NCBI GenBank assembly: GCA_023667765.1
Contig: JAMOZS010000003.1
Span: forward strand, 57,296 to 121,295
DNA length: 64,000 nt
Source of the DNA: Roseburia sp.
GTDB lineage: Bacteria; Bacillota; Clostridia; Lachnospirales; Lachnospiraceae
Direction of reading: 5' to 3'
Shown here piece after piece: positions 1-23,270 of this stretch (positions are counted from its first letter, which is position 1; each line of letters opens with the position of its first letter). The position numbers and the translations under genes are program-made. Below the pieces are notes generated by a model. It had not been told where the DNA came from. It ran no database searches and worked only from the letters and a program-made list of their open reading frames with translations.

Positions 1-1080
1 TCCTGTATAGTAGACACCCTTACGTTCGTCTCCCAGGCTCAAATCTTCCCTCTTTTGGGCATATCCCAGAGTGACATTATCTCCTCTGTAGACCAATTCA
101 CCATCCGCCTCTGCCGTTTGAATAACATTTCCTTCCTCATCCGCCAGAAATAATTCGCCCTTGGGGATTGCCTTACCAATACTGCCTATGTGCTCCAGAG
201 CCTTATCAGGCTCAAGATATGCCAGTCTGGCAGTAGTCTCTGTCGTCCCGAAGGTTGCAAAAAACTTTTTCCCGGTTCTCTCGGCATATTCCGCAAGCTC
301 CCGAAACATTTCGTCGGAAAGCTTACCCCCTCCCTGGGCCAGTATTCTCAAATCCGGTAAATCCATTTTAAAGAATCTCAGTTTCTTTAGCAATTCATAA
401 TTATAGGGAACTCCTGTAATATTGGTTACATGCCTTTCCTTGAAAACCTGCCAATATTCTCTCTCCATAGCCGTCTTTGTGGTCATGACAAGAGTTGCCC
501 CGGCAAAAAGACTGCTGCATGCCACGTTTAATCCCATTGTATAATGGAGTTGTAAATCAATCAGCGGCCTGTCCCGGTCAGTAAACCCAAAAAAGGAGGC
601 TACATTCTCCGCATTTGCAAATAAATTCTTGTAGCTGTGACGTACCAGCTTAGGACTGCCGGTAGAACCGGAGGTCGTTAAAAGCATGGATAATTCCGGA
701 TACAGGGGTGCTTTATCATAACCGGTGCGAATCAAAAGATAATCGTATTTTTCCGCAATCGTCTCATAAGGAAATTCCTTTTGCAGCTCCCTGGGAATCC
801 AGAGATATTCCGGCTGGTATGTCTCTATCAGCGTATTTCTCAAGGAAACATCCATTTTGCAGCTAATCATCAGCGGTACGATTTGATTCTCTATGGCAGC
901 CACATGACCTGCCATGGTTGCCATCGTATTCCGACATAATATAAAGATAAGCGAGCGTTCCGGGAGCCATCCGCCAAATTCTTCCACAAAGTCACACAGC
1001 TCGCCGTAGGAATACTGTTCTCCCGTATCTTCCAGAACCGCTATTCTGTCTTTTGGTTTTTCATTTAATCGTAAATACAT
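1..1080 (-). CDS. AMP-forming acyl/amino-acid ligase (3' end outside window)
   Basis: About 360 N-terminal residues of an ANL-superfamily adenylating enzyme are visible, beginning at ATG 1080 (MYLRLNEKPKDR); the rest runs off the left edge. The phosphate-binding A3 motif TTSGSTGSPK and a later GTTETTA motif (A5 position) are intact, so the N-terminal adenylation half looks functional. Such enzymes activate a carboxylic acid as an acyl-AMP and pass it to CoA or to a carrier-protein thiol. It lies 37 bases after an SGNH-like gene and is last in the visible acyl cluster, so a carrier protein of this cluster is a likely acceptor (inference). Substrate cannot be read from sequence, and the C-terminal lid domain is not seen. 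It is a different protein from the DltA-like enzyme at 12-13.5 kb. Confidence 0.85.
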   Translation of the reverse strand, partial: MYLRLNEKPKDRIAVLEDTGEQYSYGELCDFVEEFGGWLPERSLIFILCRNTMATMAGHVAAIENQIVPLMISCKMDVSLRNTLIETYQPEYLWIPRELQKEFPYETIAEKYDYLLIRTGYDKAPLYPELSMLLTTSGSTGSPKLVRHSYKNLFANAENVASFFGFTDRDRPLIDLQLHYTMGLNVACSSLFAGATLVMTTKTAMEREYWQVFKERHVTNITGVPYNYELLKKLRFFKMDLPDLRILAQGGGKLSDEMFRELAEYAERTGKKFFATFGTTETTARLAYLEPDKALEHIGSIGKAIPKGELFLADEEGNVIQTAEADGELVYRGDNVTLGYAQKREDLSLGDERKGVYYTG

Positions 1081-1117
1081 TTTTACCTCTCTATCTGTCC
1101 CACCCTGCTGGCGGCGA

Positions 1118-3496
1118 TTATTCCCATGTTCGCATGGAAAGAATCGCGCCGTTCTCCGTATCATAAACAACGGTGGTAACACCCTGCCGGTCAGACACCT
1201 TGTACTCCATCTTACCAATCCGTAAAGTTACATTTGTATCCCTTACCCGCAGCAAAAAATTTATTTTATTCTGTTTAAATCTATAATCGATATGCGACTC
1301 CTGACTTAATTGATACGTTACGACATCATTTTGCTTAACGCCAACATAATTGTTATCGGCGCTAAACTCATGGAAGCCGCTTTCCTTTAACAGCGTTTCG
1401 GTCTCCTCCGTGACACTGTTTTCCGTTGCCCGATACAGGCACATGATTTCAAAATTTTGGTTTTCTGCAGCTTTTAAATAAGCATCTAAATCCTCTATGC
1501 TGCTTAAATCCTCTTCGGAAAAATAATTTTTGGTCCATACAAATCTGGTTTTATCCACCACTCTTTGAAGCGTTTTATCATAAACCACCACAAATAATCC
1601 GGAACCGCTGCAGTCCATCTCATATTCGTTTATGATGACTTTACACATGGGGTTGTCTTTTTCGGAGCTGCTTATTATCTGCGCCCTCATACCATCAATC
1701 AATAACTGTTTTTCAATGGCCTCCCTTTTTTCTCCCAACTCCTCATATAGTACCTGACTTCCATTGACAACAGCAATATAGGGCTGCTCCTGTTGCCCTC
1801 GAAAGCCCTCCAGATTCATCTTTTTTATTCTTTTATCTACACTTTCCGGCAAATACTTGGCGGCATCCTTGCGTATTCCGATGAAGGAGATATAACGGTC
1901 ATTGTTCCTTAATTTTTTCAGATAGCCAACCGGGTCTTCATGCAATGCCAACAGACTTTTATCCTGAGAAAACACCGGTTTCTCATAAGCCTTTCCGTTA
2001 TAACCGGTGTTGAATGACTTGGTGCACACCACCATCTGCAATTCTTTATCATAAACGACGAAATTAAAGCCTGCCTTGTTCGTGCTGTAATTCTCCCCAT
2101 CAATATAGATAGAAGCCCGATTTCCGGCATAGGCATTCGCATAGCTGGATATCCGAAGCATATGTCCATCCAGAATGCCGCTATAATCTATTTGCTCCTC
2201 GCCATGTTCTTCATATATTACATTCCCATTATCTATGACAGCTATATAGCTTTGGAAAGAATTTTCAAAACTGTCGCCGTTTAATCCCAATTCACCCATC
2301 ATAGCCTTTATATCTTTGGAAAGCAGCTTTGCCGTATCATTTCGGGTGGAAACCAGGACGAAATAATCTTCTCCTTGTAAGCAATTCAGGAAATCATAAA
2401 ATTCGCTTTGCCTCGACATCTCAAAATCAGTCAGTAATCTTTTATATAATTTGTAATCCTTTTCCCATTCCGAATATTGAGGATTGTCTTTTTTATTTTC
2501 CATATGGCATTTTTCAACAAGATATGCCCCTATATAATCACTAATCTTTTTAGAACCGCTGATATTTACATGCATTCCTTCATCGGCAAAATCCGTAGAG
2601 GCGTCAAACTGTATCTCCTGCAGCAGCTCCGGATTACAAAAATCTATATAGTCTATTCCATTGGCGTCGGCAAAGTCCTGAATCGTACGATGTCTGGTCC
2701 AATTCCAATTTGCGCCGGGCGCCTTCATCAGTATCAAGGCAATTCCCTTTTCCTCGCAGATTCGAATCATCTTTTGAAAATATTCTTTTGAAAGGTCGCT
2801 TAATAAATATTCTTCATCCGGTTTTTCACTGTCCGTCTCCATATAATGTTCCCCAAAATGATATGATTTTACGTCGATTGTCGGATACTGTCCTTTATAT
2901 ACATATTTTTGTATTTTGTCTAATTTCGTAAAATCCTCTTTCGCCAGCTCCTCCCATCGGTCGTGATAGACATATAGGGGAAAGAAAAAACCGGTAGGGG
3001 AAAAGCCTCTGTTTTGGGATACTTCAGCAATCAACTGTTTCTTATATTCAGACCAGGGCATATAGTCGACTGCCTCATGCATTTTTGCTTCCAGTTCCGG
3101 AATCTTCTCAATCTCCTGATTCAGCATGGTCACGTCCAGCACGACAGCTTTCAAATCCTGCTTCTCCAGAGTTTCTAACAGGAAATAATAAGACACCTCC
3201 GGTATCTGAATACTGCTTGCTCTGGAATAACCTGTAATCCCATATTTATGAAATATTTCAAGAGGAGAAATTGCATTCCTGACCGTGCTTGCCCCCAGAT
3301 ATAATACGTCCAGCGTGTTATCCTCTTCTTCATAATATCCCTGCACAATCTGCTGCGCAGCCTTATTGTCTTCAAAATTCCATTTCTGTTGCAAAACAGA
3401 ATTCACAAAAAAGCCCAGCGCAAAAAAAAGCAATAGAAACAAAACACTCTTCAGTACAGGCCATATGATATTTCGTTTTTTGCTTTTTTCTCTCAC
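1118..3496 (-). CDS. SGNH/DltD-like membrane-anchored protein with three ILEI/FAM3-like repeats
   Basis: A 792-residue protein with one N-terminal membrane segment (about residues 11-33) and an extracytoplasmic remainder. Residues 62-330 resemble the DltD/AlgX-like SGNH proteins that accompany MBOAT acyltransferases: block I-like LYLGAST with Ser70, and a C-terminal DEGMHVN segment (Asp305, His309) followed by a GSKKISDYIG helix. Residues about 377-498, 534-655 and 681-790 are three related units with the pattern (G)xNFVVYDK, FNTG, RxDxAxxL and SYIAVIDNG. This pattern resembles the ILEI/FAM3 (PANDER-like) domain, known in animal FAM3 cytokines and in a carbohydrate-binding part of POMGNT1. 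The N-terminal two thirds is clearly paralogous to the protein at 7407-8906, sharing TGYSRASSIQ. Likely role (inference): the surface acyl-transfer partner of the MBOAT protein, with sugar-binding C-terminal modules. Confidence 0.75.
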   Translation of the reverse strand: MREKSKKRNIIWPVLKSVLFLLLFFALGFFVNSVLQQKWNFEDNKAAQQIVQGYYEEEDNTLDVLYLGASTVRNAISPLEIFHKYGITGYSRASSIQIPEVSYYFLLETLEKQDLKAVVLDVTMLNQEIEKIPELEAKMHEAVDYMPWSEYKKQLIAEVSQNRGFSPTGFFFPLYVYHDRWEELAKEDFTKLDKIQKYVYKGQYPTIDVKSYHFGEHYMETDSEKPDEEYLLSDLSKEYFQKMIRICEEKGIALILMKAPGANWNWTRHRTIQDFADANGIDYIDFCNPELLQEIQFDASTDFADEGMHVNISGSKKISDYIGAYLVEKCHMENKKDNPQYSEWEKDYKLYKRLLTDFEMSRQSEFYDFLNCLQGEDYFVLVSTRNDTAKLLSKDIKAMMGELGLNGDSFENSFQSYIAVIDNGNVIYEEHGEEQIDYSGILDGHMLRISSYANAYAGNRASIYIDGENYSTNKAGFNFVVYDKELQMVVCTKSFNTGYNGKAYEKPVFSQDKSLLALHEDPVGYLKKLRNNDRYISFIGIRKDAAKYLPESVDKRIKKMNLEGFRGQQEQPYIAVVNGSQVLYEELGEKREAIEKQLLIDGMRAQIISSSEKDNPMCKVIINEYEMDCSGSGLFVVVYDKTLQRVVDKTRFVWTKNYFSEEDLSSIEDLDAYLKAAENQNFEIMCLYRATENSVTEETETLLKESGFHEFSADNNYVGVKQNDVVTYQLSQESHIDYRFKQNKINFLLRVRDTNVTLRIGKMEYKVSDRQGVTTVVYDTENGAILSMRTWE

Positions 3497-3519
3497 GTTT
3501 CTCCTCTCAGACCCGGCGT

Positions 3520-3762
3520 TTAGAAAATATTGTATTTTTTCAATACTTCTATCCCCTTTTCAAAGGATGTAATAGCCAGTATATCGTCCGGCTCTAACTC
3601 GATATCAAATTCATCTTCTAAACCTACTATTAAATTCATATGTGCCACAGAATTCCACTTTTCCGTTACATTCAGGCAATATGTTTTGATTGCTTCTTCC
3701 TCTTCCTCAAAAGTATCCATAAAAATCTTAATATACTTATCCATGTTTTCCATTTTGGTCAC
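3520..3762 (-). CDS. acyl carrier protein with atypical NSV motif
   Basis: An 80-residue acidic helical protein with the carrier-protein layout. The presumed phosphopantetheine serine lies in EKWNSVAHMN, where the usual Asp-Ser-Leu is Asn-Ser-Val, followed by LIVGLEDEFDIEL, typical of helices II-III. The start is probably GTG at 3762, with an AAGG element six bases upstream; ATG codons at 3753 and 3744 are alternatives. It lies between the SDR gene and the large SGNH-like gene in the acyl cluster and is one of three discrete carriers in it. It should hold the growing or activated acyl group as a thioester (family knowledge). Whether the Asn-Ser-Val site is modified by the phosphopantetheinyl transferase cannot be told. 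Confidence 0.8.
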   Translation of the reverse strand: MTKMENMDKYIKIFMDTFEEEEEAIKTYCLNVTEKWNSVAHMNLIVGLEDEFDIELEPDDILAITSFEKGIEVLKKYNIF

Positions 3763-3833
3763 ATAACGCCTTGTCTTACCAAAGACGTATTTCCTTTCCT
3801 ATCATTTCATAAAACCTCTATGTATCATTGTTT

Positions 3834-4583
3834 TTAAAATCTTCCGCCGTCCACCTTCAGAATCTCACCGCTGATAAAAGAAGCCTGTTCCGAAGCTAAG
3901 AACAAAACCGCCTTTGCAATCTCTTCCGGTTCTGCCTGCCTTTTTAAATTCATTCGTTCAAGCACTTTCGCATCTATGGTATTCTGAATCTGTGCTGTCA
4001 TGTCAGTTTTTGTGGAACCGGGGGCAATTCCGTTGACCCTGATGCCATAGGGGGCCAATTCTCTCGATATCGTCCGGGTCATCCATAATAGCGCTGCCTT
4101 CGAGCCTCCGTAGGCAACTGTGCCGGGGGTATGCTCTATACCGCTCACAGAACCCACATTAATTATTATACCGCTTTTTTGCCGTATCATTCTTTTGGAG
4201 ACTGCTTGAATCAACTGAATCGGCGCATAATAATTTACCTGCATTAAGCGTTTGATTTCCTCCAGACTCGTCTGCAAAAAAGCATTCTGTGAAAAAGCTC
4301 CTGCATTATTAATCAGAATATCGATATTGATTTTCTCGGCAGTAATCTCTTTCATAGCTCCTTTTATACTGTCAGAATCAGATAAATCCGCATTTACCGC
4401 CTTCAGCCAAACGTCGTTTTGCTGTTCACAGGCACGAAGCTCCTCCTCAAACTGACTATCCACCGTACGTACCATACACCAGCAGTTCGCTCCCGCCTCT
4501 GCAATACCTTTCAGTATGGCATTACCAATTCCTCTGTTCGCGCCGGTAAGAATTACATTTTTGCCCTGCAATATTTTTTCCAT
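3834..4583 (-). CDS. SDR-family 3-oxoacyl-ACP reductase-like protein
   Basis: A 249-residue classical short-chain dehydrogenase. The NAD(P)-binding motif TGANRGIG is at residues 14-21, NNAG in the middle, a Ser near NVGSVSG, and YGGSK supplies the catalytic Tyr and Lys. It ends GEILKVDGGRF as FabG proteins do. Family members reduce a 3-oxoacyl thioester to a 3-hydroxyacyl thioester, usually with NADPH. It follows the ketosynthase III gene after 25 bases and is the second ketoreductase of the cluster, so it either works on a different intermediate or forms a hetero-oligomer with the one at 5679-6416 (inference). No dehydratase gene accompanies it. Confidence 0.85.
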   Translation of the reverse strand: MEKILQGKNVILTGANRGIGNAILKGIAEAGANCWCMVRTVDSQFEEELRACEQQNDVWLKAVNADLSDSDSIKGAMKEITAEKINIDILINNAGAFSQNAFLQTSLEEIKRLMQVNYYAPIQLIQAVSKRMIRQKSGIIINVGSVSGIEHTPGTVAYGGSKAALLWMTRTISRELAPYGIRVNGIAPGSTKTDMTAQIQNTIDAKVLERMNLKRQAEPEEIAKAVLFLASEQASFISGEILKVDGGRF

Positions 4584-4608
4584 AATACCAAAACCCTATC
4601 TCCCTCTT

Positions 4609-5658
4609 TTATTCGGAAACCGTACAGTCATTGTCGTCGTCATAATAATGATTTGTTGCAAAGATATCAATCACTGCATCCGGTGCCAGAACCATATCTG
4701 CGACCCCCCATGACAGGCCAATGCCAAAACCGGACATCAAAATATGCGTATCCTTATCCCTATTATGTTCCAGAGAGGTTGTAATAACCAGCGGAATAGA
4801 AGAACTGCTGGAATTCCCATATTCTCTCAGGACAATGGGCGTCTTTTCCATCGGGAATTTGCATTTTTTTGCAATCTGCTTAATAATCAACTCATTTGCC
4901 TGATGCAAGGCAAATAAATCTATTTGCTCTAAATCAATCCCGTATTGACTGATAAAATTCTTAATGGCCTTTGGCACCTCTGTGATGGAAAACGTAAAGA
5001 CGTCCATCCCTGACATTCCCACATAAACCTCTTTGCTTTCCGGATGTCTGAATTCTCCTCCACGAGCAAAAATACTCTTATATCCGGAACCATCCGCCCC
5101 TAATAAATAATGAATATCGGGGCAGCCCTCAGAGATTTCCAATGCTGTTGCAGAACCGATATCTGCAAACAACAGACTGGAGGTTACATTCGGATCCACC
5201 GCCTTACTGCTTAAATCACCGCAAAGTAATAAGGCGCGCTTCGTATCGGAGGTCTGCATAAAAGAACCTATCACCGATAAGCCATATACATATCCGGAAC
5301 ACCCCAGTTTGATATCAAGCACCATTGTTTCCTTAGACAGATTCAACCTTTTTTGGAGTACTCCGCCGTTTGCGGGTCTCTTATAATCCTGAGCCAGTGT
5401 TACAAAAACCAGGGCGCCTATACTTTCTTTTTCCCATTTCAACTCTTCTATCAATCTTTCCGCCGCCTCATAACACAAATCGGAAGCGGTCTGCTTTTCC
5501 TTAGTACGATAGGTAGAACGCACCCCCGTCTGGTCAACTACGCGTTCCAATACTTCCTTTTCAAATTTGTCCGTGTAATCCACTGTCATCTTTTTGTTAT
5601 CAGGAAGAGCACATACCACCCCTTTAATTCCTATGCCCTTTAACTGTCCTAATGCCAT
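4609..5658 (-). CDS. 3-oxoacyl-ACP synthase III (FabH-like)
   Basis: A 349-residue thiolase-fold ketosynthase. The complete KAS III catalytic triad is visible: Cys in LGCSGYVYGL, His in ALHQAN, and Asn in YGNSSSSS. ATG 5658 has a strong GGAGG upstream. KAS III enzymes condense an acyl-CoA starter with malonyl-ACP to give a 3-oxoacyl-ACP. It sits between the two ketoreductases and close to a malonyltransferase gene, forming a minimal condensation-reduction set. Since the cell's housekeeping FabH would normally sit in a fab operon with FabF and FabZ, this copy is more likely specialised for the cluster product (inference). Some KAS III relatives act as ester-forming acyltransferases, so that role cannot be excluded. 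Confidence 0.9.
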   Translation of the reverse strand: MALGQLKGIGIKGVVCALPDNKKMTVDYTDKFEKEVLERVVDQTGVRSTYRTKEKQTASDLCYEAAERLIEELKWEKESIGALVFVTLAQDYKRPANGGVLQKRLNLSKETMVLDIKLGCSGYVYGLSVIGSFMQTSDTKRALLLCGDLSSKAVDPNVTSSLLFADIGSATALEISEGCPDIHYLLGADGSGYKSIFARGGEFRHPESKEVYVGMSGMDVFTFSITEVPKAIKNFISQYGIDLEQIDLFALHQANELIIKQIAKKCKFPMEKTPIVLREYGNSSSSSIPLVITTSLEHNRDKDTHILMSGFGIGLSWGVADMVLAPDAVIDIFATNHYYDDDNDCTVSE

Positions 5659-5678
5659 TGGCTTCTCCTCCTACATTT

Positions 5679-6416
5679 TTAAAAACTGCCGCCGTCTATT
5701 ACCATACCGGCTCCTGTAATAAATTTTCCCGCATCCGATAATAAATACGCCGCCATATTGGCAATATCTATGGGCTCGCCGACGCCCAATAACTGATTGA
5801 CAGAATCTCTGTCTGCCTGATTAAAATAATCATTGGCCATCTTTGTATGAATGAATCCCGGCATAATACTGTTTACACGGATATTTTTATGGGCCAGCTC
5901 CTTAGCCAGCACCTTTACGGCCGAATTTAACGCCGCCTTGCTCGGCGCATATGCCAGCTGTCCCTTATTATTTGATTTCGCTGCTTTGGAAGAGATTGCG
6001 ACAACGCTTCCTCCGTTATTATTCTTTTTCTTCTCATATTGACGCATCAATTCAATAAAAGAATAATAGTTAATCCTCATTACCTCGTCGATTTTATCGA
6101 TGCTTAACATACGAAGCGCACAGGTTTTCGTGATTCCCGCACAATGAACCAATCCGTCCAGCTTCTGACCGTCATAGGAAACGGCTTCGTTGACCAGTTC
6201 TTCTATCTTTTCCGTCTGAGACAAATCACATGCGATACAATAATGCCCCTCTCCCTCCATCATGGACAGGGTTTCCTGCAGCGCCTCCTGATTCCGGGCT
6301 ACCGCCACCACCTTTGCGCCTATCTGGCTTAGCAAAATTGCGGTTTCACGGCCGATTCCCGAAGAAGCTCCTGTGACCAGAATTTTTTTTCCGTTTAATG
6401 CAATAATTGTTTTCAC
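5679..6416 (-). CDS. SDR-family 3-oxoacyl-ACP reductase (FabG-like)
   Basis: A 245-residue SDR with TGASSGIG near residue 15, a VHCAG motif in place of NNAG, VAISSKAAKS carrying the catalytic Ser, YAPSK with Tyr and Lys, and a GAGMVIDGGSF C-terminus. The start is GTG at 6416, supported by GGAG six bases upstream inside the preceding gene; the two genes are separated by one base, implying translational coupling with the malonyltransferase. Predicted reaction: NADPH-dependent reduction of 3-oxoacyl-ACP. It is about the same length as the second SDR at 3834-4583 but clearly divergent from it, so this is not a recent duplication. Confidence 0.87.
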   Translation of the reverse strand: MKTIIALNGKKILVTGASSGIGRETAILLSQIGAKVVAVARNQEALQETLSMMEGEGHYCIACDLSQTEKIEELVNEAVSYDGQKLDGLVHCAGITKTCALRMLSIDKIDEVMRINYYSFIELMRQYEKKKNNNGGSVVAISSKAAKSNNKGQLAYAPSKAALNSAVKVLAKELAHKNIRVNSIMPGFIHTKMANDYFNQADRDSVNQLLGVGEPIDIANMAAYLLSDAGKFITGAGMVIDGGSF

Positions 6417-6417
6417 G

Positions 6418-7329
6418 TTATTCTCCGTATCTCATCAAATCTTCTACTGTCTCGATATTTTCCACTAAAACATCCTTTGTAATTTTTCGAATAAATTTCT
6501 TTAATGTATTTCCGGGACCGATTTCAATAAATTTTTCCACCCCCTGCGCCAACATGGTTTCCACACTCTGCTGCCATAAAACAGGGGAGCTAATCTGTTC
6601 CACAAGTATATCCGGTATCACTTCCTTGTCTTCTATCAGCCGGGCATTCCTATTGGCAACATAGGGAATCTGCAATGGTCTCCAATGAATTTGTCCCAAT
6701 TCGCTTCTTAATTTTTCTCCCGCTTCTCTTAACATGGGAGAATGAAAGGGTCCGCTGACATTAAGAGGAACCACCTTTAACGCCCCCGCCTGCATAAGCG
6801 CTTCACTCACTTCCCGAACCTTCGCAGACGCTCCAGAAATAACGGTCTGACCGGGACAATTATAATTTGCAATGGTAACCTTCCCCTCCGTCTGCGCACA
6901 AATCTCTTCTATTGAGCGAATATCCAATCCCAGGACAGCGCTCATCGCACCCTGCCCTGGAGGAACGGCCTCCTGCATATAAAGGCCTCTTTTTCCCACG
7001 CATTGCAGGGCTTCGCCAAAATCATAAGCCCCTGCCACATACAAAGCTGCATACTCTCCCAAACTCAATCCTGCCGTTAATTTGGTTTCTAATCCAATCT
7101 CTCGAAACGCTTCATACATGGCCACGCAAACGGTAAACATGGCCGGTTGGGTATATTCCGTAATGTTTAATTTATCGTTTTCCTCAAAACAAAGCTTACA
7201 GATATCCATCTTCAGGGTATCTGACGCCTCTTCCAGAATCTTCCTACTTACATCAAATGTTTCATAGAAATCCTTCCCCATTCCAAAATACTGGGCGCCC
7301 TGCCCGGGAAAAACAACCGCCGTTTTCAT
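6418..7329 (-). CDS. malonyl-CoA:ACP transacylase (FabD-like)
   Basis: About 303 residues from ATG 7329 (MKTAVVFPGQGAQ), chosen because GAGG lies six bases upstream; longer starts exist but lack the family N-terminus. The QGAQ oxyanion motif, the nucleophile motif GLSLGEYAAL and the His motif GPFHSPM are all intact. FabD enzymes move malonyl from CoA to the carrier phosphopantetheine, supplying the extender for KAS III. It lies between an SGNH-like gene and a ketoreductase in one apparent operon. A dedicated malonyltransferase here suggests that the cluster loads its own carrier proteins rather than relying on the housekeeping set (inference). Confidence 0.9.
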   Translation of the reverse strand: MKTAVVFPGQGAQYFGMGKDFYETFDVSRKILEEASDTLKMDICKLCFEENDKLNITEYTQPAMFTVCVAMYEAFREIGLETKLTAGLSLGEYAALYVAGAYDFGEALQCVGKRGLYMQEAVPPGQGAMSAVLGLDIRSIEEICAQTEGKVTIANYNCPGQTVISGASAKVREVSEALMQAGALKVVPLNVSGPFHSPMLREAGEKLRSELGQIHWRPLQIPYVANRNARLIEDKEVIPDILVEQISSPVLWQQSVETMLAQGVEKFIEIGPGNTLKKFIRKITKDVLVENIETVEDLMRYGE

Positions 7330-7406
7330 AGCTAACCTCATTCCTGCGCCCTTCCCTGTCAATACCCTTTCAAGCGCAAAATTTATTTCTTTTAAAAGCT
7401 ATCCCT

Positions 7407-8906
7407 TCAACCTCTGGTATATAACCTTCCTGTTTTCCCTGTATTGAATGCCTTAGAATCAATGACTCTTCCAAGCGTTTTATCATAAACGACAAAATTG
7501 AGTCCGCTTCTCGTTTCCGCCTCCAGCGTATCGTTGATGGAAATATTCATATAAGATTCGGACAATCTGTCCGATTCGCTCATCAAATAAATATCGACCC
7601 CATCCAGAACGGTTTGATATTCCACACGCTGGGAAACAGAAACCTCTTCATAGACGGCTTCTCCTCCGTCTACAAGAGCCACATAACTATTAAAAGGATA
7701 TCGGGAATGATCCACCTCCAGTCCCAGGGTTTTCATCTGCTCATAGATTTCCTCCGTGAAATACGTGGAGGTATCATATCTGGAAGTTACGGCAACCAAA
7801 TAATCTTCATCCGAAAGCATATCAATATAGGAAAAGATATCGGAGCACTTGGTCAGCTCATACGCTTTCCATTCTCTTTCGTATCGCTGATAATCTAAAT
7901 CCCATTGCTCATAGCCGGTCTTTCCCCTTTTATCCGTCAATTCATAATTGTCAGATAAAAATTCACCAAGGGACTTGGATACTTTTGTAGCGCCGTTTAC
8001 ATTTAAATGAGCGCCATAATCCTTAAAGTCCGTTTTGGTATTCAGATTGACTGCCTCCATCGTATCCTGTACGGCATAGTCAAGAAATTTCAGGCCCTTT
8101 TCCTCCGCATATTGCCGGATAAGATGATGTTTTTCGTTTGTCCATGTCACTGTGGGCATTTTCAACAAAACCAATTCAGCCCCGTTTTGCTCACACAATT
8201 GTTTCATGAGTTCCACACAGTATGCCGTCGTATCGTCAATGGCAAGCGGCTCTTCAGAAATTACATCGAAAGAACCCTCCGGATATTCATAAGCTGTTGT
8301 CGTGATTGCCGGGTACTGGCCCTTATACGCATAGTGATTATCTGACGAAAGGGCAAAATCCTCTTTTGTTAATTCTTCCCATCTGTCATGATAACGATAT
8401 AAGGGCGAGGCCAGACTCAGGAATGATAACTCACTGTTTTCACAAATGGAATTTATCATCTTGATTTTCGGAACAGACCAGGGCATATTATCCACAACCT
8501 CATGCAACTTGCCTTCATTTTCCTCATAATCATTTAAGGATTCCGCCGTAACATTACACAAACCGGAGGCTTCATAGAACACTACCTTGGGGCTTTGATG
8601 TTGAAAGGTTTCCTCCAACAACCAGTAAGATACAATGGGAGGCTGTATACTGCTGGCTCTGGAATACCCGGTATATCCATACTCATTCCAGATTTCCAGA
8701 GAAGAAATACCATTTCTGACTGCACTGAATCCCAGATAAATAATATCCAACGTATTATCCGGCTCATCATAATATCCCTTCATGATTTCCGTCGCTGCAT
8801 TATCATCCATATAATTCCACTTTTTGGAAAAAACATAACTCATGGATATCACTGAGAAAATCAAAACAATACCCATTATGAATATGCTTCTTAGAATTTT
8901 TTTCAT
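7407..8906 (-). CDS. SGNH/DltD-like membrane-anchored protein with one ILEI/FAM3-like unit
   Basis: About 499 residues from ATG 8906, with TGAGGTG upstream overlapping the MBOAT stop. One N-terminal membrane helix (about residues 4-25) is followed by an SGNH-like domain: IIYLGFSAV with Ser61 as presumed nucleophile and a KDYGAHLNVNGA segment with Asp and His late in the domain. The C-terminus carries one unit like those in the protein at 1118-3496 (DYLVAVTSRYDTS, SYVALVDGG, RSGLNFVVYDKTL, AFNTG). The paralogues share KWN, GYYxExDNTLD and TGYSRASSIQ. Its position directly after an MBOAT gene is the classical arrangement for AlgX/AlgJ and DltD partners, which hand acyl groups on outside the membrane; that role is inferred. 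Confidence 0.75.
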   Translation of the reverse strand: MKKILRSIFIMGIVLIFSVISMSYVFSKKWNYMDDNAATEIMKGYYDEPDNTLDIIYLGFSAVRNGISSLEIWNEYGYTGYSRASSIQPPIVSYWLLEETFQHQSPKVVFYEASGLCNVTAESLNDYEENEGKLHEVVDNMPWSVPKIKMINSICENSELSFLSLASPLYRYHDRWEELTKEDFALSSDNHYAYKGQYPAITTTAYEYPEGSFDVISEEPLAIDDTTAYCVELMKQLCEQNGAELVLLKMPTVTWTNEKHHLIRQYAEEKGLKFLDYAVQDTMEAVNLNTKTDFKDYGAHLNVNGATKVSKSLGEFLSDNYELTDKRGKTGYEQWDLDYQRYEREWKAYELTKCSDIFSYIDMLSDEDYLVAVTSRYDTSTYFTEEIYEQMKTLGLEVDHSRYPFNSYVALVDGGEAVYEEVSVSQRVEYQTVLDGVDIYLMSESDRLSESYMNISINDTLEAETRSGLNFVVYDKTLGRVIDSKAFNTGKTGRLYTRG

Positions 8907-8917
8907 CTGCCAACACC

Positions 8918-10516
8918 TCAAAAATTCATGTACGTAAAGCTCGCCGCATCATATCCCATGCCATATGCGCCAAAGATAATAATGGAATAAATTCCCACAA
9001 GATAAATCATCCATCGCACGACAAGATTCTGCTTATGCAGGACTTCCCGCATTTGATAACCCTTTTCCTGGCACAGACTTACAATCAATACTATCAGCAA
9101 AGCAATCAGCACCACATGAAACTGCTTTTCCGTTACTCCCAGTGTATATAAAGAGCCGTCAAATAATATCCAGGGATTAAATGTCTTAAATACGGAGCTT
9201 ACCGCAATCTTTACCTCCGACCAATTCGTTGCCTTGTAAAAAGGTCTTACCAAAAATACAATCCAGAATGTTCTGAGAACTCTGATTACCTTCCAGCTTA
9301 AGCATTCCGTATTAATCTTAAGCTTCCGGGTAATCTTTTTGATGACATCTTCCAGGGAAAAGGATAACGCCACTAAAATACCATGATATAAACCGCCAAT
9401 CAGATATACACAATTTGCGCCGTGCCAGAAACTGTTTATCACACGAACTACCAACAGCGAAAGCATAATAGGCACTTTCTTACCGAAATTTGCACCAAAA
9501 ATCTTTCGGCATTTTTGACCCAGCTTCGTTAAAGGCTTTGATAATGTCATGGGGTAGAAAATATAATCTCTCCACCAATCATTGAGAGACATATGCCATC
9601 TGCGCCAAAATTCCGGAAGCGAATCGGCAAAAAACGGCCTCTTGAAATTTTCCGCCAGTTCAATTCCCAGCATTTCCGCCACTCCGCGAGCAATATCTAT
9701 TCCGCCGGAGAAGTCCATGTACAATTCTATCCAGCTCAACGGACTGGCAACGACCAGCCACATTCCCGGATATTCCTGAGGATTGGATAAAATAGCAGTA
9801 TTCATAATGGTCAATCTGTCCGCTATAACCATCTTTTTAAAATATCCCCACAGCATTAACTCGGCGCCTGAGCGGATTCGGCTAAAATCGAATTTCCTGG
9901 ACTCAAATAATTGAGTAACCAAATCGTCATATCTTGCCACAGGTCCCTGAATAATCTGCGGAAAAAAGGAGATAAATAAGGCATATTTTGCCAAATTTTT
10001 CTCCGGCGCATATTTATCTCTATAAACATCCACAATATACCCTATCGACGAGAAGGTATAAAAAGAAATTCCCAAGGGTAAAAACAAATTAATCGATGAT
10101 ACTCTGAAATCACTTTTTGTAAAGGATAATACAAAATTAGAGAAACCGCTGATGACATTAAAGTATTTCAGCACAAATAATATGCCAAAATTAGCCAAAA
10201 TAAATAGAGTAAGAATGCTCCTCTTCTGAATTTTATATTGTTCTTTTAATTTATTTTTTTCTTCCTTTGCCGCAGCCTTTCCCAATTCCTTCAACTCGGC
10301 ATTGAAGGCGATATTCTTCTTACCAAGCCATAAGCCGCAGGCATAGGTGGACGCCGTCGTAAAAACAATGAAACCGACTAACTTCACTCCCGCAAACAGA
10401 TAAAAGACATAACTTGCCACAAGTAAAGTCACCCACTGATATTTAGACGGCGTAATATAATATGCTATAACTACCAATGCCAAAAACAGCAAAAAAGAAA
10501 TTGACATAAACGACAT
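8918..10516 (-). CDS. MBOAT-family O-acyltransferase (DltB/AlgI-like)
   Basis: A 532-residue polytopic membrane protein. It has the MBOAT hallmarks: FYTFSSIGYIVDVYR in the N-terminal half, FFPQIIQGPVARY, the family signature FWRRWHMSLNDWWRDY, and the conserved histidine in SFWHGANCVY. Family members move an acyl group from an intracellular acyl carrier or CoA across the membrane to an extracytoplasmic polymer. The next gene downstream encodes an SGNH-like partner, as in alg and dlt systems. It lies in the same operon as two carrier proteins and an adenylating enzyme, so the donor is probably a thioester on one of these carriers (inference). Start ATG 10516 has AGAGG nine bases upstream. Confidence 0.93.
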   Translation of the reverse strand: MSFMSISFLLFLALVVIAYYITPSKYQWVTLLVASYVFYLFAGVKLVGFIVFTTASTYACGLWLGKKNIAFNAELKELGKAAAKEEKNKLKEQYKIQKRSILTLFILANFGILFVLKYFNVISGFSNFVLSFTKSDFRVSSINLFLPLGISFYTFSSIGYIVDVYRDKYAPEKNLAKYALFISFFPQIIQGPVARYDDLVTQLFESRKFDFSRIRSGAELMLWGYFKKMVIADRLTIMNTAILSNPQEYPGMWLVVASPLSWIELYMDFSGGIDIARGVAEMLGIELAENFKRPFFADSLPEFWRRWHMSLNDWWRDYIFYPMTLSKPLTKLGQKCRKIFGANFGKKVPIMLSLLVVRVINSFWHGANCVYLIGGLYHGILVALSFSLEDVIKKITRKLKINTECLSWKVIRVLRTFWIVFLVRPFYKATNWSEVKIAVSSVFKTFNPWILFDGSLYTLGVTEKQFHVVLIALLIVLIVSLCQEKGYQMREVLHKQNLVVRWMIYLVGIYSIIIFGAYGMGYDAASFTYMNF

Positions 10517-10536
10517 CGTATTGTACCTCTCTGTGC

Positions 10537-11382
10537 TTAATCAACAGTCCATTCTTCCATCATTCTGTCAGTCCACTCAAACCCCAGCTTTTTATGGAAC
10601 TTGATAGATTCCCGATTATCCCGGCGCACCCATCCGTATATCTTTTTAACTCCATTTTCCAAGGCATATTTAAAAGAATGGTACATAAACATAATGGCAA
10701 TGCCGTATTCCTTCTGATAGCTTTCCTTTATGGCATACCAACTATGCAGCATCTTATTCTGACATTCGAATTGTCTCACCGCACATATTTCATGTTTCTC
10801 ATTTACCACACAAAGCAGCCAGCCCTTTTCTATCATCTGCAGGTATTCCTCCTCCGTATAATAAGCCAGCTCATAGTATGGTATATTTTGAATTTCGCCC
10901 TGCAGACTTACAAACTCAGATAGCTGGGCCTGTTCCAGCGTCCGGTAATGGAGCTTATTCTGCTCAAAAAGCTTCTCTACTGCTTTCATTGGCTTTTTTA
11001 ATTTCTCCATGGCCGTCTCGGGATGATTCTGGATATAATCCATTACACCGCTTAACCGAAATCCTCCGTTTTCCAAAAGTCCCGTCAACTCCCCATTGGT
11101 CCTGGCGTTAGGATATATCACCTGAGCCAGGACAAGCTTATCCTTTTTACAGACTTTCATATTTAACGAAGGATTCAAATAAAAGTAACAGCGGTAATGC
11201 GTGTCCTCATCAGAATAGAACAGACAGCCCGCCTCTACTTCTTCTACATATAATCTACCCAGTCCGATATACCTTTCGACTTGTTCGCGAAACATATAAT
11301 CATTGGAAACCGTCTTTCCGACGCGGCTTTTTGTTTCTATAATATATTCTTTGTATCTGTCATACGTATCAACTCGAAACAT
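10537..11382 (-). CDS. GNAT-family acyltransferase
   Basis: About 281 residues from ATG 11382, preferred over ATG 11397 because AGAGG lies just upstream. The C-terminal third has GNAT features: a strand with SWYAIKESYQKEYG, an acetyl-CoA-binding-like helix, and the terminal NRESIKFHKKLGFEW, which is the usual Asn-x-x-Ala/Ser-xx-xYxKxGF end motif. The N-terminal 170 residues are less conserved and may form a second, degenerate GNAT fold. Likely function is acyl transfer from CoA, or from one of the neighbouring carrier proteins, to an amine or hydroxyl; the substrate is unknown. The gene sits between the carrier proteins and the MBOAT gene, so it may prepare the acyl group. Confidence 0.7.
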   Translation of the reverse strand: MFRVDTYDRYKEYIIETKSRVGKTVSNDYMFREQVERYIGLGRLYVEEVEAGCLFYSDEDTHYRCYFYLNPSLNMKVCKKDKLVLAQVIYPNARTNGELTGLLENGGFRLSGVMDYIQNHPETAMEKLKKPMKAVEKLFEQNKLHYRTLEQAQLSEFVSLQGEIQNIPYYELAYYTEEEYLQMIEKGWLLCVVNEKHEICAVRQFECQNKMLHSWYAIKESYQKEYGIAIMFMYHSFKYALENGVKKIYGWVRRDNRESIKFHKKLGFEWTDRMMEEWTVD

Positions 11383-11421
11383 CGCTTTCCTCTTCATTCA
11401 CCGCCGTTATCTCTGTCTCAT

Positions 11422-11640
11422 TTAATTCATAAGATTGATTAAATCGCTTACTTTTTTACAGCCCTTTAACACGCCGGATTCTACTTTCTTGCCAAATTCA
11501 TCATCTAACAATACAATAAAATTCAAATAAGCCATCGAATCCCATTCGCCAATCGTATCAAGCTCCATTTCCATATCCAAATCACTTGCTTCCATATCCA
11601 ATACTTCCGCCAGCATTTCTAATTTCTTATTATCATCCAT
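11422..11640 (-). CDS. acyl/peptidyl carrier protein (DltC-like)
   Basis: A 72-residue acidic carrier protein. The phosphopantetheine attachment site is EWDSMAYLNF (Asp-Ser-Met), as in DltC-type and stand-alone peptidyl carriers, followed by IVLLDDEFGKKV. ATG 11640 has GGAGG upstream. It is the second of two adjacent carrier genes that follow the adenylating enzyme, so it may receive the adenylated substrate. The motif around its serine is closer to that of the carrier at 3520-3762 (ExWNSVAxxN) than to its direct neighbour, suggesting separate duties for the carriers (inference). Confidence 0.87.
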   Translation of the reverse strand: MDDNKKLEMLAEVLDMEASDLDMEMELDTIGEWDSMAYLNFIVLLDDEFGKKVESGVLKGCKKVSDLINLMN

Positions 11641-11681
11641 TTTGTTAACCTCCGTTTCCTAAATGGCAAATCATATTGGTT

Positions 11682-11909
11682 TTAACCTTCCACAAGACGA
11701 TTAATCATCTCCATCATAGCATCAACAGACTCAAAATTCTCAGGTTCAATTTCATCTATCGGCACCTCAATATCATATGCTTCATTAACTTCTGTAACAA
11801 TAGAGATAACGTCAAAAGAATCAAGGTCACCGCTTTCCACTAAATCAGTACGTCCCTCAAAGTCAAATCCAGGCTTAATCTCTGCCAGAATCTTCATCAA
11901 CTGCTCCAT
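11682..11909 (-). CDS. acyl carrier protein
   Basis: A 75-residue acidic carrier protein with attachment serine in SGDLDSFDVISIV (Asp-Ser-Phe) and the downstream VNEAYDIEVPIDEIEPENF that marks helices II-IV of ACPs. ATG 11909 has GGAGG at ideal spacing. It lies 122 bases after the adenylating enzyme and 41 before the next carrier. ACPs carry acyl intermediates as phosphopantetheine thioesters; with a malonyltransferase, KAS III and ketoreductases in the same operon, this one is a candidate for the condensation branch, while the DltC-like one may serve the adenylation branch (inference). Confidence 0.88.
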   Translation of the reverse strand: MEQLMKILAEIKPGFDFEGRTDLVESGDLDSFDVISIVTEVNEAYDIEVPIDEIEPENFESVDAMMEMINRLVEG

Positions 11910-12031
11910 TTTTCAACCTCCGTTTTGTTATGTTTACAAATCATGCGAAATTTCTTTTAAATATTCGCTCGTATCTCATCATATCAGTATTCTTGTTAAA
12001 ATACAACACTTATTTTTTGGAAATACGAAGC

Positions 12032-13549
12032 TCAAATTTTCTTTTTATAGATGGCGCTTAATTCCTTTCTGTCTACCTTTCCGTTTTGATTTTTTGGCAT
12101 CTCCTCCAGCGAAAGCATAACATTAGGCAGCATATAGGAAGGAATCTTCTCACTCATATACTTCCGAATATCCTTATCCGTCACATTGCTTCCCTGAAAA
12201 AACAGCACAATTTTTTCCTTATCCGTGTCATATATACATGCACACATTTCTATGCCCGGAACACAGCCCGCAGCATTCTCGATTTCTCCCAGCTCAATTC
12301 TGTTTCCTCTATGCTTAATCTGGAAATCCTTTCGTCCATGATACATGAGTTCTCCATATTTATTTACGCTCACCAGATCCCCCGTTTTGTATATCAGCTC
12401 AGGATAATTGGGATTTAAGGGATTTTGAACAAATACTTCCCGGGTCTTTTCCGCATTATTATAATACCCCAACGCTAAATAGCTTCCCCTTATACAAAGC
12501 TCGCCTATTTCTCCGTCCGGGACTTCCCTTCCCTCCTCATCTAAAATCAGGGCATCTACATTGTCACAGGTATTTCCTATCGGTAACGCTTCATCATCAG
12601 CAAACTCTCTGTTGACAATATAATAAATACCGATATCCGTTATCTCTGTTGGTCCGAATAAATTCGCATATAATGCATTGGGAAGATGTTTTCTCCACAT
12701 ATTCAACTGTTTTACAGGCATAGGCTCCCCTGCAAACAATATCTTCTTAAGATACGGAAGCTCCATTTTATCCAGAGCCTTCAGGTTTGCCACAATACAC
12801 AAGGCCGTGGGAACCCAATAAATAGAATTAATTTTTCTTTCATTTAAATGATTTAATAATTTATTGGGGAACGCAAAAAACTGTTTAGGAATCACATGTA
12901 ATTCCGCACCGCTTCTTATTGTCGCATAAATATCCAGCACTGACATGCTAAAATAAAAAGGTGTCTGATTCCCAAAAATAGTATTTTCATCAAACTGAAA
13001 AGTATCTGTCAACCAGTCCGCATAATCAATCACCGAACGATGACAACATATAACTCCCTTAGGAATACCTGTAGAACCCGAAGTAAACAAAGAATAGACA
13101 GGATCCGTGTCTATTGCCTTGTCACGTACTTTCTGTATTATCTCCTCATCTATCGGTGTTTCTACACCTTTAGAAAACAATATGATATCCGTATTCGCTC
13201 CAATCGCCTTTGCCTTCTCAAAATAATTCTCATCCGTAATAATTGCAAAAGGCTGCACCGTATCGAATATTCTCTCTATTCTGTCATTCGGCATTTCCGT
13301 ATCTATAGGGATATAGAAGTTTCCGCTATAAACTATCCCCATAAAGCTTACCAGCATATCCTTACCTTTTTCCTGTAAAACCGCAACTGCTGTACGCCTT
13401 TTACCGGAAGATGCCAAATATGTTCCGATTGCTTTGGCCTCTTTCACGGCATCTGCATATGTAACCTGACCTTCTTTATCAGAAAATGCTACTTTATCCG
13501 GAAAACGACAAGCAGAATTTTCCAATAACTGTAAAATATTTTTTTTCAT
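12032..13549 (-). CDS. amino-acid/acyl adenylating enzyme (DltA-like)
   Basis: A 505-residue full-length stand-alone adenylation protein. Visible core motifs: FTSGSTGIPKGV (A3), NLFGPTEIT (A5), YKTGDLV (A7), GRKDFQIKHRGNRIELGEIE (A8) and the C-terminal NQNGKVDRKEL with the catalytic lysine (A10). This is the layout of D-alanine:carrier ligase DltA and stand-alone NRPS adenylation domains; it makes an aminoacyl- or acyl-AMP and loads a carrier phosphopantetheine. Two carrier genes follow immediately. Start ATG 13549 has AAGGAGG upstream. Substrate specificity cannot be assigned by eye, so a D-alanine role is only one possibility. A standard dltABCD operon is not present here. Confidence 0.9.
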   Translation of the reverse strand: MKKNILQLLENSACRFPDKVAFSDKEGQVTYADAVKEAKAIGTYLASSGKRRTAVAVLQEKGKDMLVSFMGIVYSGNFYIPIDTEMPNDRIERIFDTVQPFAIITDENYFEKAKAIGANTDIILFSKGVETPIDEEIIQKVRDKAIDTDPVYSLFTSGSTGIPKGVICCHRSVIDYADWLTDTFQFDENTIFGNQTPFYFSMSVLDIYATIRSGAELHVIPKQFFAFPNKLLNHLNERKINSIYWVPTALCIVANLKALDKMELPYLKKILFAGEPMPVKQLNMWRKHLPNALYANLFGPTEITDIGIYYIVNREFADDEALPIGNTCDNVDALILDEEGREVPDGEIGELCIRGSYLALGYYNNAEKTREVFVQNPLNPNYPELIYKTGDLVSVNKYGELMYHGRKDFQIKHRGNRIELGEIENAAGCVPGIEMCACIYDTDKEKIVLFFQGSNVTDKDIRKYMSEKIPSYMLPNVMLSLEEMPKNQNGKVDRKELSAIYKKKI

Positions 13550-13610
13550 AATTCCTCCTTAAATTTTTGTTCTACCTCTATCACATTCTGTTCCGGCAAA
13601 CATAATATAT

Positions 13611-14252
13611 CTAAGTAATTCTAAAATCCGTCCTATACCCGGACATTCCATGGCCCGGATATATATACCCATCAGGGGCAATATTCTCCAAAAAAGGCTT
13701 TGTTATTTCGTTATATTTTTCTTTGCTTCCGGATTTCATTTTCGTTGTGACATCTGTATCTCTCAACAGACTGTCACCTGTAAAAACATATACTTTATCA
13801 ATCACAATACAAATACTTCCTTCGGAATGCCCCGGCGTTTCTTTCAAATAGACATCATGCCCCTCCCAATGTAGAAGAGCCTCTTCCTCAAATTCCCAGG
13901 TAGCCGTACATTCATACGGTTCTGTTCTTTTATATTCCGTCATGTCTTTATTCAAAAACAGTATGTCATAATACCTGGAAATATTATCTTTTGCACTCTG
14001 AATATTCTTTGCGCACTTTTTAGAGCATACCACCTGACACTGAAACTTCTCCTTAAAAGCATTTACACCGGAGATGTGATCATAATGTTCGTGCGTCAAT
14101 ATAATCAGAACTTCTTTCACTCCATTATTATCCAATAAACTAAAAGCCTCTTCTCTAATACAGGGATCAATAACCAATGCTTTATTTTTTTCAATGATTA
14201 TATACATTTTAGAGTCTATTGGTTGAAAACTATAATCCTGAACCCTCATCAC
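13611..14252 (-). CDS. metallo-beta-lactamase-fold hydrolase
   Basis: A 213-residue protein of the glyoxalase II-like MBL fold. The metal-binding motif is LTHEHYDHISG (HxHxDH), with a further His in ETPGHSEGS, an Asp in VFTGDSLLRD and a His in YPGHGM, so all usual dinuclear metal ligands are visible. It is the first gene after the promoter at about 14.4 kb and precedes the adenylating enzyme by 61 bases. Members hydrolyse thioesters, lactones or phosphodiesters. In this operon an editing thioesterase that clears misloaded carriers is plausible, but that is inference. Start is GTG 14252 or the adjacent ATG 14249, with GGAGG upstream. Confidence 0.8.
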   Translation of the reverse strand: MMRVQDYSFQPIDSKMYIIIEKNKALVIDPCIREEAFSLLDNNGVKEVLIILTHEHYDHISGVNAFKEKFQCQVVCSKKCAKNIQSAKDNISRYYDILFLNKDMTEYKRTEPYECTATWEFEEEALLHWEGHDVYLKETPGHSEGSICIVIDKVYVFTGDSLLRDTDVTTKMKSGSKEKYNEITKPFLENIAPDGYIYPGHGMSGYRTDFRIT

Positions 14253-23231: not shown

Positions 23232-23270
23232 TCTCATCCTCCCATATCAAATTACACTACACTTACCGAC

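What the first reader, a model, noticed from the sequence alone, without database searches (positions are those of the whole stretch)
1..14252. Hybrid acyl-building and surface acyl-transfer cluster
One co-oriented run combines a dlt-like half (adenylating enzyme, carrier proteins, MBOAT, SGNH-like partners) with a fatty-acid/polyketide-like half (malonyltransferase, ketosynthase III, two ketoreductases, another carrier, second AMP ligase), plus GNAT and MBL-fold enzymes. Known dlt, alg and oat systems use ready-made acyl donors; here the cell seems to build a dedicated acyl group and put it on an outer polymer. All key catalytic motifs are intact. The logic as a system is my inference.
Basis: partly seen in the sequence, partly recalled or inferred. 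Interest (0 to 1): 0.8.

Follow-up and report, generated by a model that had tools for sequence, protein, structure and literature searches.

The report
Acyl-building operon with surface acyltransferase
A bacterial genome of the class Clostridia carries, inside the genes for a surface sugar polymer, one operon that seems to make its own small acyl group and hand it to a membrane enzyme pair that can attach it to that polymer; both halves are known separately, their union is rare.

Summary
Thirteen co-oriented genes lie complete at 1118-14252 and a fourteenth runs off the left edge; gaps are at most 122 nt. Further left the genome has a carboxyltransferase and a second MBOAT/SGNH/ligase/carrier module, all in a polysaccharide locus.

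Both halves are known kinds. KAS III + ketoreductase is a recurrent cassette of surface-glycan clusters, often beside amino-sugar genes; F. psychrophilum authors attribute a 3,5-dihydroxyhexanoyl group to such genes. Ligase, carrier, MBOAT and SGNH-like genes form common operons in this family, with a DltX-like shuttle motif fused to the MBOAT. Their union is rare: KAS III and MBOAT stand in one operon here and in congener G231; it was in none of 50 other family MBOAT loci, and 4 of 80 KAS III loci have an MBOAT somewhere within reach.

Best reading: a carrier-bound 3-hydroxyacyl group passes through the MBOAT (His308/His365, Tyr529) and an SGNH serine to the polysaccharide. Supporting: interleaved gene order, G231, no PglD/NeuD homolog in 103 kb. 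Not shown: acyl group, carrier hand-over, acceptor. New variant of a known kind.

The parts
13611..14252 (-). A: MBL-fold hydrolase, possible editing thioesterase (role inferred); recurrent near KAS III cassettes
   Evidence: PF00753 56 bits; homologs in the KAS III loci L015, L016, L046, L048 and L160
12032..13549 (-). B: DltA-like adenylating enzyme; Ser201 where adenylation domains have Asp
   Evidence: TIGR01733 over cut-off; DltA model TIGR01734 305.6 bits, under its 559.85 cut-off; of 43 sequences, B included, 38 Asp, 3 Ser, 1 Val, 1 Ile
11682..11909 (-). C: DltC-like carrier protein, Ser31
   Evidence: PF00550; DltC models 33.4 and 24.5 bits, under cut-offs; five best homologs lie in MBOAT loci
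11422..11640 (-). D: fatty-acid-type acyl carrier protein, Ser35
   Evidence: PF00550; best homolog is the carrier next to KAS III in G231
10537..11397 (-). E: GNAT acyltransferase of a family that co-occurs with B-type ligases
   Evidence: PF13420/PF00583; 10 further members in 9 other loci
8918..10516 (-). F: MBOAT (DltB-like core) with fused C-terminal acyl-shuttle motif FTYMNF; H308, H365, Y529
   Evidence: PF03062; DltB structures, E 1.7e-23; motif and residues
7407..8921 (-). G: SGNH-like protein (S66, D301, H305 counted from the TTG at 8921; an ATG lies at 8906) with one C-terminal ILEI-like domain
   Evidence: motifs; ILEI 25.9 bits, just under cut-off 27; comparison with M
6418..7362 (-). 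H: second FabD (malonyl-CoA:ACP transacylase)
   Evidence: TIGR00128 305.6 bits, over cut-off 260.9; other FabD 46% identical on C16
5679..6416 (-). I: 3-oxoacyl-ACP-type reductase KR1
   Evidence: PF13561; FabG models match under cut-off
4609..5658 (-). J: KAS III of the surface-glycan type (C120, H252, N282)
   Evidence: PF08541/PF08545; best solved relative 4efi; relatives
3834..4583 (-). K: second ketoreductase KR2
   Evidence: PF13561; best homologs lie beside L- and N-type genes in L096, L015, L046
3520..3762 (-). L: divergent acyl carrier protein, Ser38
   Evidence: no Pfam match, weak NCBIfam carrier matches; homologs in L015, L018, L046, L096, L160
1118..3496 (-). M: SGNH-like protein (S70, D305, H309) with three ILEI-like domains; paralog of G
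   Evidence: PF15711 31.7 bits, over cut-off 27; repeats; motifs
1..1080 (-). N: second AMP-forming acid ligase, cut by the window edge (whole gene C35:56975-58375)
   Evidence: PF00501 134.6 bits; best homolog in the C. symbiosum KAS III cassette

Best explanation
An operon of a surface polysaccharide locus joins a type II fatty-acid-like R-group cassette to an MBOAT-SGNH transmembrane acyltransferase. Inferred route: FabD (H) loads malonyl on carrier D or L; KAS III (J) condenses it with a short primer (acetyl-CoA, or an acid loaded by ligase N or B); KR1/KR2 reduce the ketone; with no dehydratase or enoyl reductase among the operon's genes the product stays a short 3-hydroxyacyl group (simplest case 3-hydroxybutyryl). 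The carrier-bound acyl goes to MBOAT F, onto its own C-terminal Tyr529, then to the SGNH serine of G or M, then as an ester to the polysaccharide. Shown: the genes, their motifs and co-orientation, the recurrence of each half elsewhere, and KAS III next to MBOAT in a second species. Inferred: co-transcription, the acyl identity, the hand-over to F, the acceptor.
For: Fourteen same-strand genes with gaps of 1 to 122 nt. Interleaving: D and E sit between C and F, whereas ligase-carrier-MBOAT-SGNH is uninterrupted in 22 of 51 family MBOAT loci; SGNH M sits between L and N, whereas no SGNH-like gene separates the L, K and N types in L015, L046 and L096. G231 has SGNH-MBOAT-KAS III-carrier-FabA/Z-type ... 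carrier-AMP ligase; its KAS III is J's closest relative seen (53%, clade support 1.0) and it also gave the best D and L matches (G760's L-type carrier was fetched later and is not in that comparison). FabD and KAS III copies lie with a fab set on C16, so H and J are extra. No homolog of five NeuD/PglD-type queries in C35:18000-121295. F has the FxYxxF shuttle motif and both DltB active-site histidines.
Against: Relatives nearly always keep the halves apart: KAS III in 0 of 50 family MBOAT neighbourhoods other than G231's; MBOAT in 4 of 80 KAS III loci, none of them directly joined in one co-oriented run: L071 has MBOAT-SGNH on the opposite strand right after the cassette, L070 has it about 4 kb further on, L062 and L087 have AlgI-like ones. 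G231's MBOAT and ligase are nearer to the second module (U, S) than to F, B or N, and its KAS III has Tyr for the catalytic His, so the parallel is imperfect. Ligase-carrier-MBOAT-SGNH with Ser-type B occurs without KAS III in L138 and L148, so this module may use its own acid. B and F have different nearest relatives, so the module is a mosaic. GNAT E is an alternative transferase. No expression or chemistry data.
Confidence: 0.5

Rival explanations
1. Two separate decorations share one operon: B-C-F-G transfers an acid activated directly by B, while the KAS III cassette makes a second acyl group that GNAT E puts on an amino sugar in the cytoplasm.
For: The four-gene run stands without KAS III and with Ser-type B in L138 and L148. 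The cassette without MBOAT is the rule, with an amino-sugar marker (NeuD, DegT, PglC or NeuB type) in 49 of 80 loci, 36 of the 48 full-length ones. E-family GNATs lie in fetched loci without an MBOAT hit, all but L030. The own locus has a DegT aminotransferase and two dehydratase-type genes that could serve an amino sugar.
Against: Interleaved order in both directions; the aminotransferase lies about 31 kb from the KAS III gene (C35:29409-30674 and 61904-62953) and no NeuD/PglD homolog was found in 103 kb; in G231 KAS III stands beside MBOAT, and the iterative search with E found no member in its locus L018.
Confidence: 0.3
2. Composite acyl: E joins the 3-hydroxyacyl group on D to an amine-bearing acid on C, and the joined group is exported by F.
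For: Gene order C-D-E-F; 8 of the 9 other loci with an E-family GNAT also hold a B-type ligase (all but L059, an 8.1-kb contig); some relatives have other amino-acid or amine-modifying enzymes within 6 kb of the MBOAT: formyltransferase in 3, PLP-decarboxylase-like in 8, E-like GNAT in 1 of 51 loci.
Against: Ser201 in B argues against an alpha-amino acid, so the amine would have to sit elsewhere in the acid; nothing shows coupling.
Confidence: 0.12
3. An ordinary dlt operon for D-alanyl esters, with an unrelated fatty-acid cassette dropped next to it.
For: B, C, F, G mirror dltA, dltC, dltB, dltD in kind; B, C and F match DltA, DltC and DltB models; B is the only close DltA-like gene found in the genome, the next hits being 25-27% identical.
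Against: The Dlt models matched by B, C and F score below their cut-offs; Asp lost in B; no gap of DltX size between these genes, the shuttle motif being fused to F.
Confidence: 0.05

Closest known systems
Flavobacterium psychrophilum O-antigen wfpC-wfpG R-group genes (PMC6519341, passages)
   Same: Dedicated carrier, 3-ketoacyl-ACP synthases and a reductase, proposed by the authors to build 3,5-dihydroxyhexanoyl for a surface polysaccharide
   Different: There two synthases, and a PglD homolog predicted to N-acylate a nucleotide sugar; here one KAS III, FabD, two reductases, no PglD homolog found, and MBOAT-SGNH genes instead. Their sequences were not compared here
Dlt teichoic acid D-alanylation (DltA, DltC, DltB, DltX, DltD)
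   Same: AMP ligase, carrier, MBOAT, SGNH-like protein; acyl-tyrosine motif
   Different: Scores below the Dlt cut-offs, Asp replaced by Ser in the ligase, shuttle motif fused to the MBOAT, acyl-building genes in the same run, polysaccharide locus
PatA/PatB and other MBOAT-SGNH pairs with fused shuttle (PMC12148441, passages)
   Same: C-terminal FxYxxF on the MBOAT, SGNH-like partner
   Different: The paper says that those lack a carrier and use acyl-CoA; here carrier and AMP ligase genes sit in the operon
[Clostridium] symbiosum ATCC 14940 cassette (L046)
   Same: MBL, KAS III, KR1, L-type carrier, KR2, N-type ligase and, after one further gene, a P-type carboxyltransferase
   Different: Follows DegT-PglC-NeuD types; no MBOAT hit in the 21-kb locus
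Rhizobium leguminosarum exopolysaccharide with 3-hydroxybutanoyl on galactose (PMC11598398, passages)
   Same: A substituent of the kind proposed here, on a surface polysaccharide
   Different: Its biosynthetic genes were not compared here

Membership tests
Dlt D-alanylation system | DltA, DltC, DltB at curated cut-offs | tested here: not met
   TIGR models: B 305.6 of 559.85, C 24.5 of 52.35, F 139.2 of 375 bits; the other DltA and DltC models are also under cut-off (315.9 of 476, 33.4 of 68)
Dlt D-alanylation system | Asp of the ligase that holds the D-Ala amino group | tested here: not met
   Ser201 aligns with Asp in two gramicidin synthase domains and in 38 of 43 sequences. That DltA uses this Asp is recalled; a text search of PMC13231372 for it found nothing
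Dlt D-alanylation system | separate DltX microprotein | tested here: not met
   No gap over 122 nt between A and N, motif fused to F; DltX was not searched elsewhere in the genome
Dlt D-alanylation system | activates D-alanine | not testable with these tools
   needs an enzyme assay
MBOAT-SGNH envelope acyltransferases | MBOAT active-site histidines and C-terminal acyl-shuttle Tyr motif | tested here: met
   H308, H365, Y529 in FTYMNF
MBOAT-SGNH envelope acyltransferases | SGNH partner | tested here: inconclusive
   D292, H299, N301 of row 1 invariant in 18 MBOAT-linked homologs, the serine position not among the invariant columns; Ser and D..HxN motifs seen in G; no significant match to a solved SGNH protein; structure prediction was not obtained
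Surface-glycan R-group cassette (wfp type) | KAS III, ketoreductase and dedicated carrier in a glycan locus | tested here: met
   the same set in other glycan loci
Surface-glycan R-group cassette (wfp type) | PglD/NeuD-type N-acyltransferase | tested here: not met
   no homolog of five NeuD-type queries among my ORFs of C35:18000-121295 (C35:1-17999 not searched); present in 30 of 80 other loci
Housekeeping type II fatty acid synthesis | KAS II, dehydratase and enoyl reductase with the set | tested here: not met
   none among the operon genes; a fab set lies on C16 (KAS II and enoyl reductase there are my reading of protein starts)

The most novel reading that the evidence does not exclude
A cell-envelope assembly line: a purpose-built 3-hydroxyacyl chain on carrier D is joined by GNAT E to a second, amine-bearing acid held on carrier C by ligase B, and the composite group is exported through a carrier-fed MBOAT with built-in tyrosine shuttle and two SGNH enzymes with sugar-binding-type domains onto a surface polysaccharide.
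Probability: 0.12. Interest if true: 0.75.

Novelty: new variant of a known kind. Interest (0 to 1): 0.5.

Why it matters
If the built group is what the MBOAT exports, envelope acylation need not depend on ready-made acetyl-CoA or D-alanine: a small synthase cassette plugged into a dlt-like exporter would let a cell put new ester groups on its surface. The MBOAT operons seen here also hold both a carrier gene and a built-in shuttle motif, which the paper read (PMC12148441, passages) assigns to different systems. Of 53 F-like MBOATs from relatives 50 end in the motif, and 30 of the 53 have both the motif and a carrier gene within 6 kb.

Tried and rejected
Plain dlt operon: rated low because of cut-offs, Asp loss and fused shuttle. 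Ser201 as unique to this cluster: first suggested by 11 sequences, then withdrawn, because the MBOAT-linked B of L138 and L148 share it; the distant L029 ligase (115 bits) also shows Ser in a divergent motif. B as plain dlt-type partner of F: the trees put B with ligases of KAS III clusters plus L138 and L148 (L073, also from a KAS III cluster, falls elsewhere), while F's best matches are in L019 and L020. The second KAS III type as a CerJ-like transferase (recalled idea): not supported, all 21 of that type keep Cys-His-Asn. Co-occurrence of KAS III and MBOAT as a broad rule: rejected. The promoter and terminator scan gave numbers near the shuffled expectation and decided nothing.

Papers: of ten searches, 36, 60, 61, 78 and 103 bear on MBOAT or Dlt with acyl building; no listed title describes an MBOAT fed by a KAS III cassette, but 60, 78 and 103 held more papers than were listed. 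Searches were on precedents. I read passages of PMC12148441, PMC6519341, PMC9802357, PMC11598398 and PMC11035591; a term search in PMC13231372 gave no passage; of the others I saw listings and starts of abstracts. The library lacks most subscription journals.

Limits: comparing MBOAT and KAS III positions between searches was by eye, and the MBOAT list was truncated. The 51 MBOAT loci were taken mostly from the top of that score list (plus L018, chosen for its KAS III), several from one genome; a 52nd, L146, was dropped because my ORF picker missed its MBOAT. Genes in relatives were called by my own ORF picker and best match to reference proteins, not curated.

Full report
WHAT IS THERE. The window is contig C35:57296-121295 of a 2.79-Mb genome in 101 contigs. 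Transcribed right to left are A MBL, B DltA-like ligase, C and D carriers, E GNAT, F MBOAT, G SGNH-like, H FabD, I KR1, J KAS III, K KR2, L carrier, M SGNH-like, N AMP ligase. Gaps from A to N are 1 to 122 nt. Left of the window the same strand continues: UDP-glucose/GDP-mannose dehydrogenase type, an MmdA-like carboxyltransferase (P), a GT2, then SGNH-like R, ligase S, carrier T and MBOAT U, the last 4 to 9 kb beyond the edge. The surroundings are a polysaccharide locus: two flippases, GT4, GT8, pyruvyl transferase, EpsG, two initiating sugar transferases, dehydratase-type genes, DegT and GDP-mannose dehydratase. G+C is 0.38-0.44 over the operon and about 0.50 between 18 and 24 kb.

THE BUILDER HALF. 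On C16 the genome has FabD, reductase, FabA/Z-like, carboxylase and KAS III homologs together (a KAS II and an enoyl reductase there are my reading of protein starts). H, J and P are therefore additional copies. A scan of genome contigs with five KAS III sequences kept 80 named loci. In these a ketoreductase was labelled in 72 of 80, two or more KAS III in 44, DegT in 45, NeuD/PglD type in 30, any amino-sugar marker in 49, a carrier in 24, FabD in 4, MBOAT in 4. MBL, KAS III, KR1, L-type carrier, KR2, N-type ligase and a P-type carboxyltransferase recur in C. symbiosum (L046), and H, J, L, K, N types in L096. G017 has the A, D, I, J, K, L, N types; G760 has D, A, J, I, K, L and an S/N-type ligase beside NeuA, NeuB and NeuD types. 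F. psychrophilum authors attribute a 3,5-dihydroxyhexanoyl group to such genes (PMC6519341, passages). So building an acyl group for a surface glycan is a known kind of thing.

THE TRANSFER HALF. 111 of 200 family genomes have an F-like MBOAT at E 1e-60 or better. Of 52 loci examined 51 gave an MBOAT; an SGNH-like gene was found in 46, an AMP ligase in 42, a carrier in 33. All four stand on one strand within 6 kb in 27 of 51, in the order ligase-carrier-MBOAT-SGNH in 22 of 51. F ends in FTYMNF and U in FAYQQF. Of 53 further F-like MBOATs 50 end in F-x-Y-x-x-F/Y/W; 30 of the 53 have the motif and a carrier gene within 6 kb, 20 the motif alone, 3 a carrier alone. PMC12148441 (passages) describes this hexapeptide as the acyl shuttle: on the microprotein DltX in the carrier-fed Dlt system, and fused to the MBOAT in pathways that lack a carrier. 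The operons here have both. G carries one and M three ILEI-like domains. FAM3/POMGnT1 stem domains bind sugars (PMC9802357, passages); that these belong to the ILEI family is recalled, so a polymer-gripping role is plausible but untested.

THE LIGASE. B has Ser201 where adenylation domains have Asp (two gramicidin synthase domains). Of 43 sequences, B included, 38 have Asp, 3 Ser, 1 Val, 1 Ile. The Ser-bearing L138 and L148 form a clade with B (support 0.981), which groups with seven ligases of KAS III clusters (0.996). L138 and L148 are ligase-carrier-MBOAT-SGNH operons without KAS III in the fetched stretch. The plain reading is that this sub-family activates an acid without an alpha-amino group; it does not by itself tie B to the builder.

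ARE THE HALVES LINKED? For: interleaving in both directions, one gap-poor run, no NeuD/PglD homolog found in C35:18000-121295, and G231, the only other of 138 genus genomes with this KAS III at E 1e-60, where KAS III follows MBOAT directly. The two KAS III are sisters with support 1.0. Against: KAS III is absent from all 50 other family MBOAT neighbourhoods, and the family loci of G017, G180, G188, G108 and G760 show the cassette with no MBOAT hit in about 20 kb. Strong KAS III homologs are rare anyway: 5 of 397 family genomes at 1e-55 and 7 of 391 class genomes at 1e-58, this genome counted in both. G231's KAS III has Tyr for the active-site His, alone among 136 aligned, and its MBOAT and ligase are nearer to the second module U and S than to F, B or N, so even the one parallel case may do different chemistry.

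VERDICT. The best-supported model is a mosaic operon in which a glycan R-group cassette feeds, or at least accompanies, an MBOAT-SGNH exporter with carrier and fused shuttle. I give 0.5 to feeding, 0.3 to two separate decorations, 0.12 to a composite group and 0.05 to plain D-alanylation. It is a new variant of known kinds: interesting because the union is testable and the MBOAT architecture is frequent here, not because either half is new.

Noticed in passing
L026, L116, L119, L122, L129, L143, L147, L149: A PLP-dependent ornithine/DAP-decarboxylase-like gene lies within 6 kb of the MBOAT in 8 of 51 family loci, between ligase and carrier in L026, L147 and L149; it may make or alter the acid that is loaded. 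Only the L026 protein was checked against Pfam.
   Followed up: partly
L019:11556-12440, L024:6697-7599, L111: Formyltransferase-type genes near the MBOAT in 3 of 51 family loci, in L019 between the DltA-like ligase and the carrier; Pfam confirms those of L019 and L024. This suggests formylated aminoacyl esters.
   Followed up: partly
L018:9649-10707: KAS III of congener G231 has Tyr in place of the catalytic His, alone among 136 KAS III aligned.
   Followed up: no
C35:48270-55580, left of the window (L007): A second SGNH-ligase-carrier-MBOAT module and an additional carboxyltransferase continue the same strand; its ligase resembles that of G231 and of L139.
   Followed up: partly
window 7407-8921 and 1118-3496: G and M are paralogs with one and three ILEI-like domains; matching stretches of about 50 nt are 76% identical in DNA.
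   Followed up: partly
window 22623-23237 and 37633-39072: Two initiating sugar transferases in one locus, which suggests two polymers or a composite locus.
   Followed up: no
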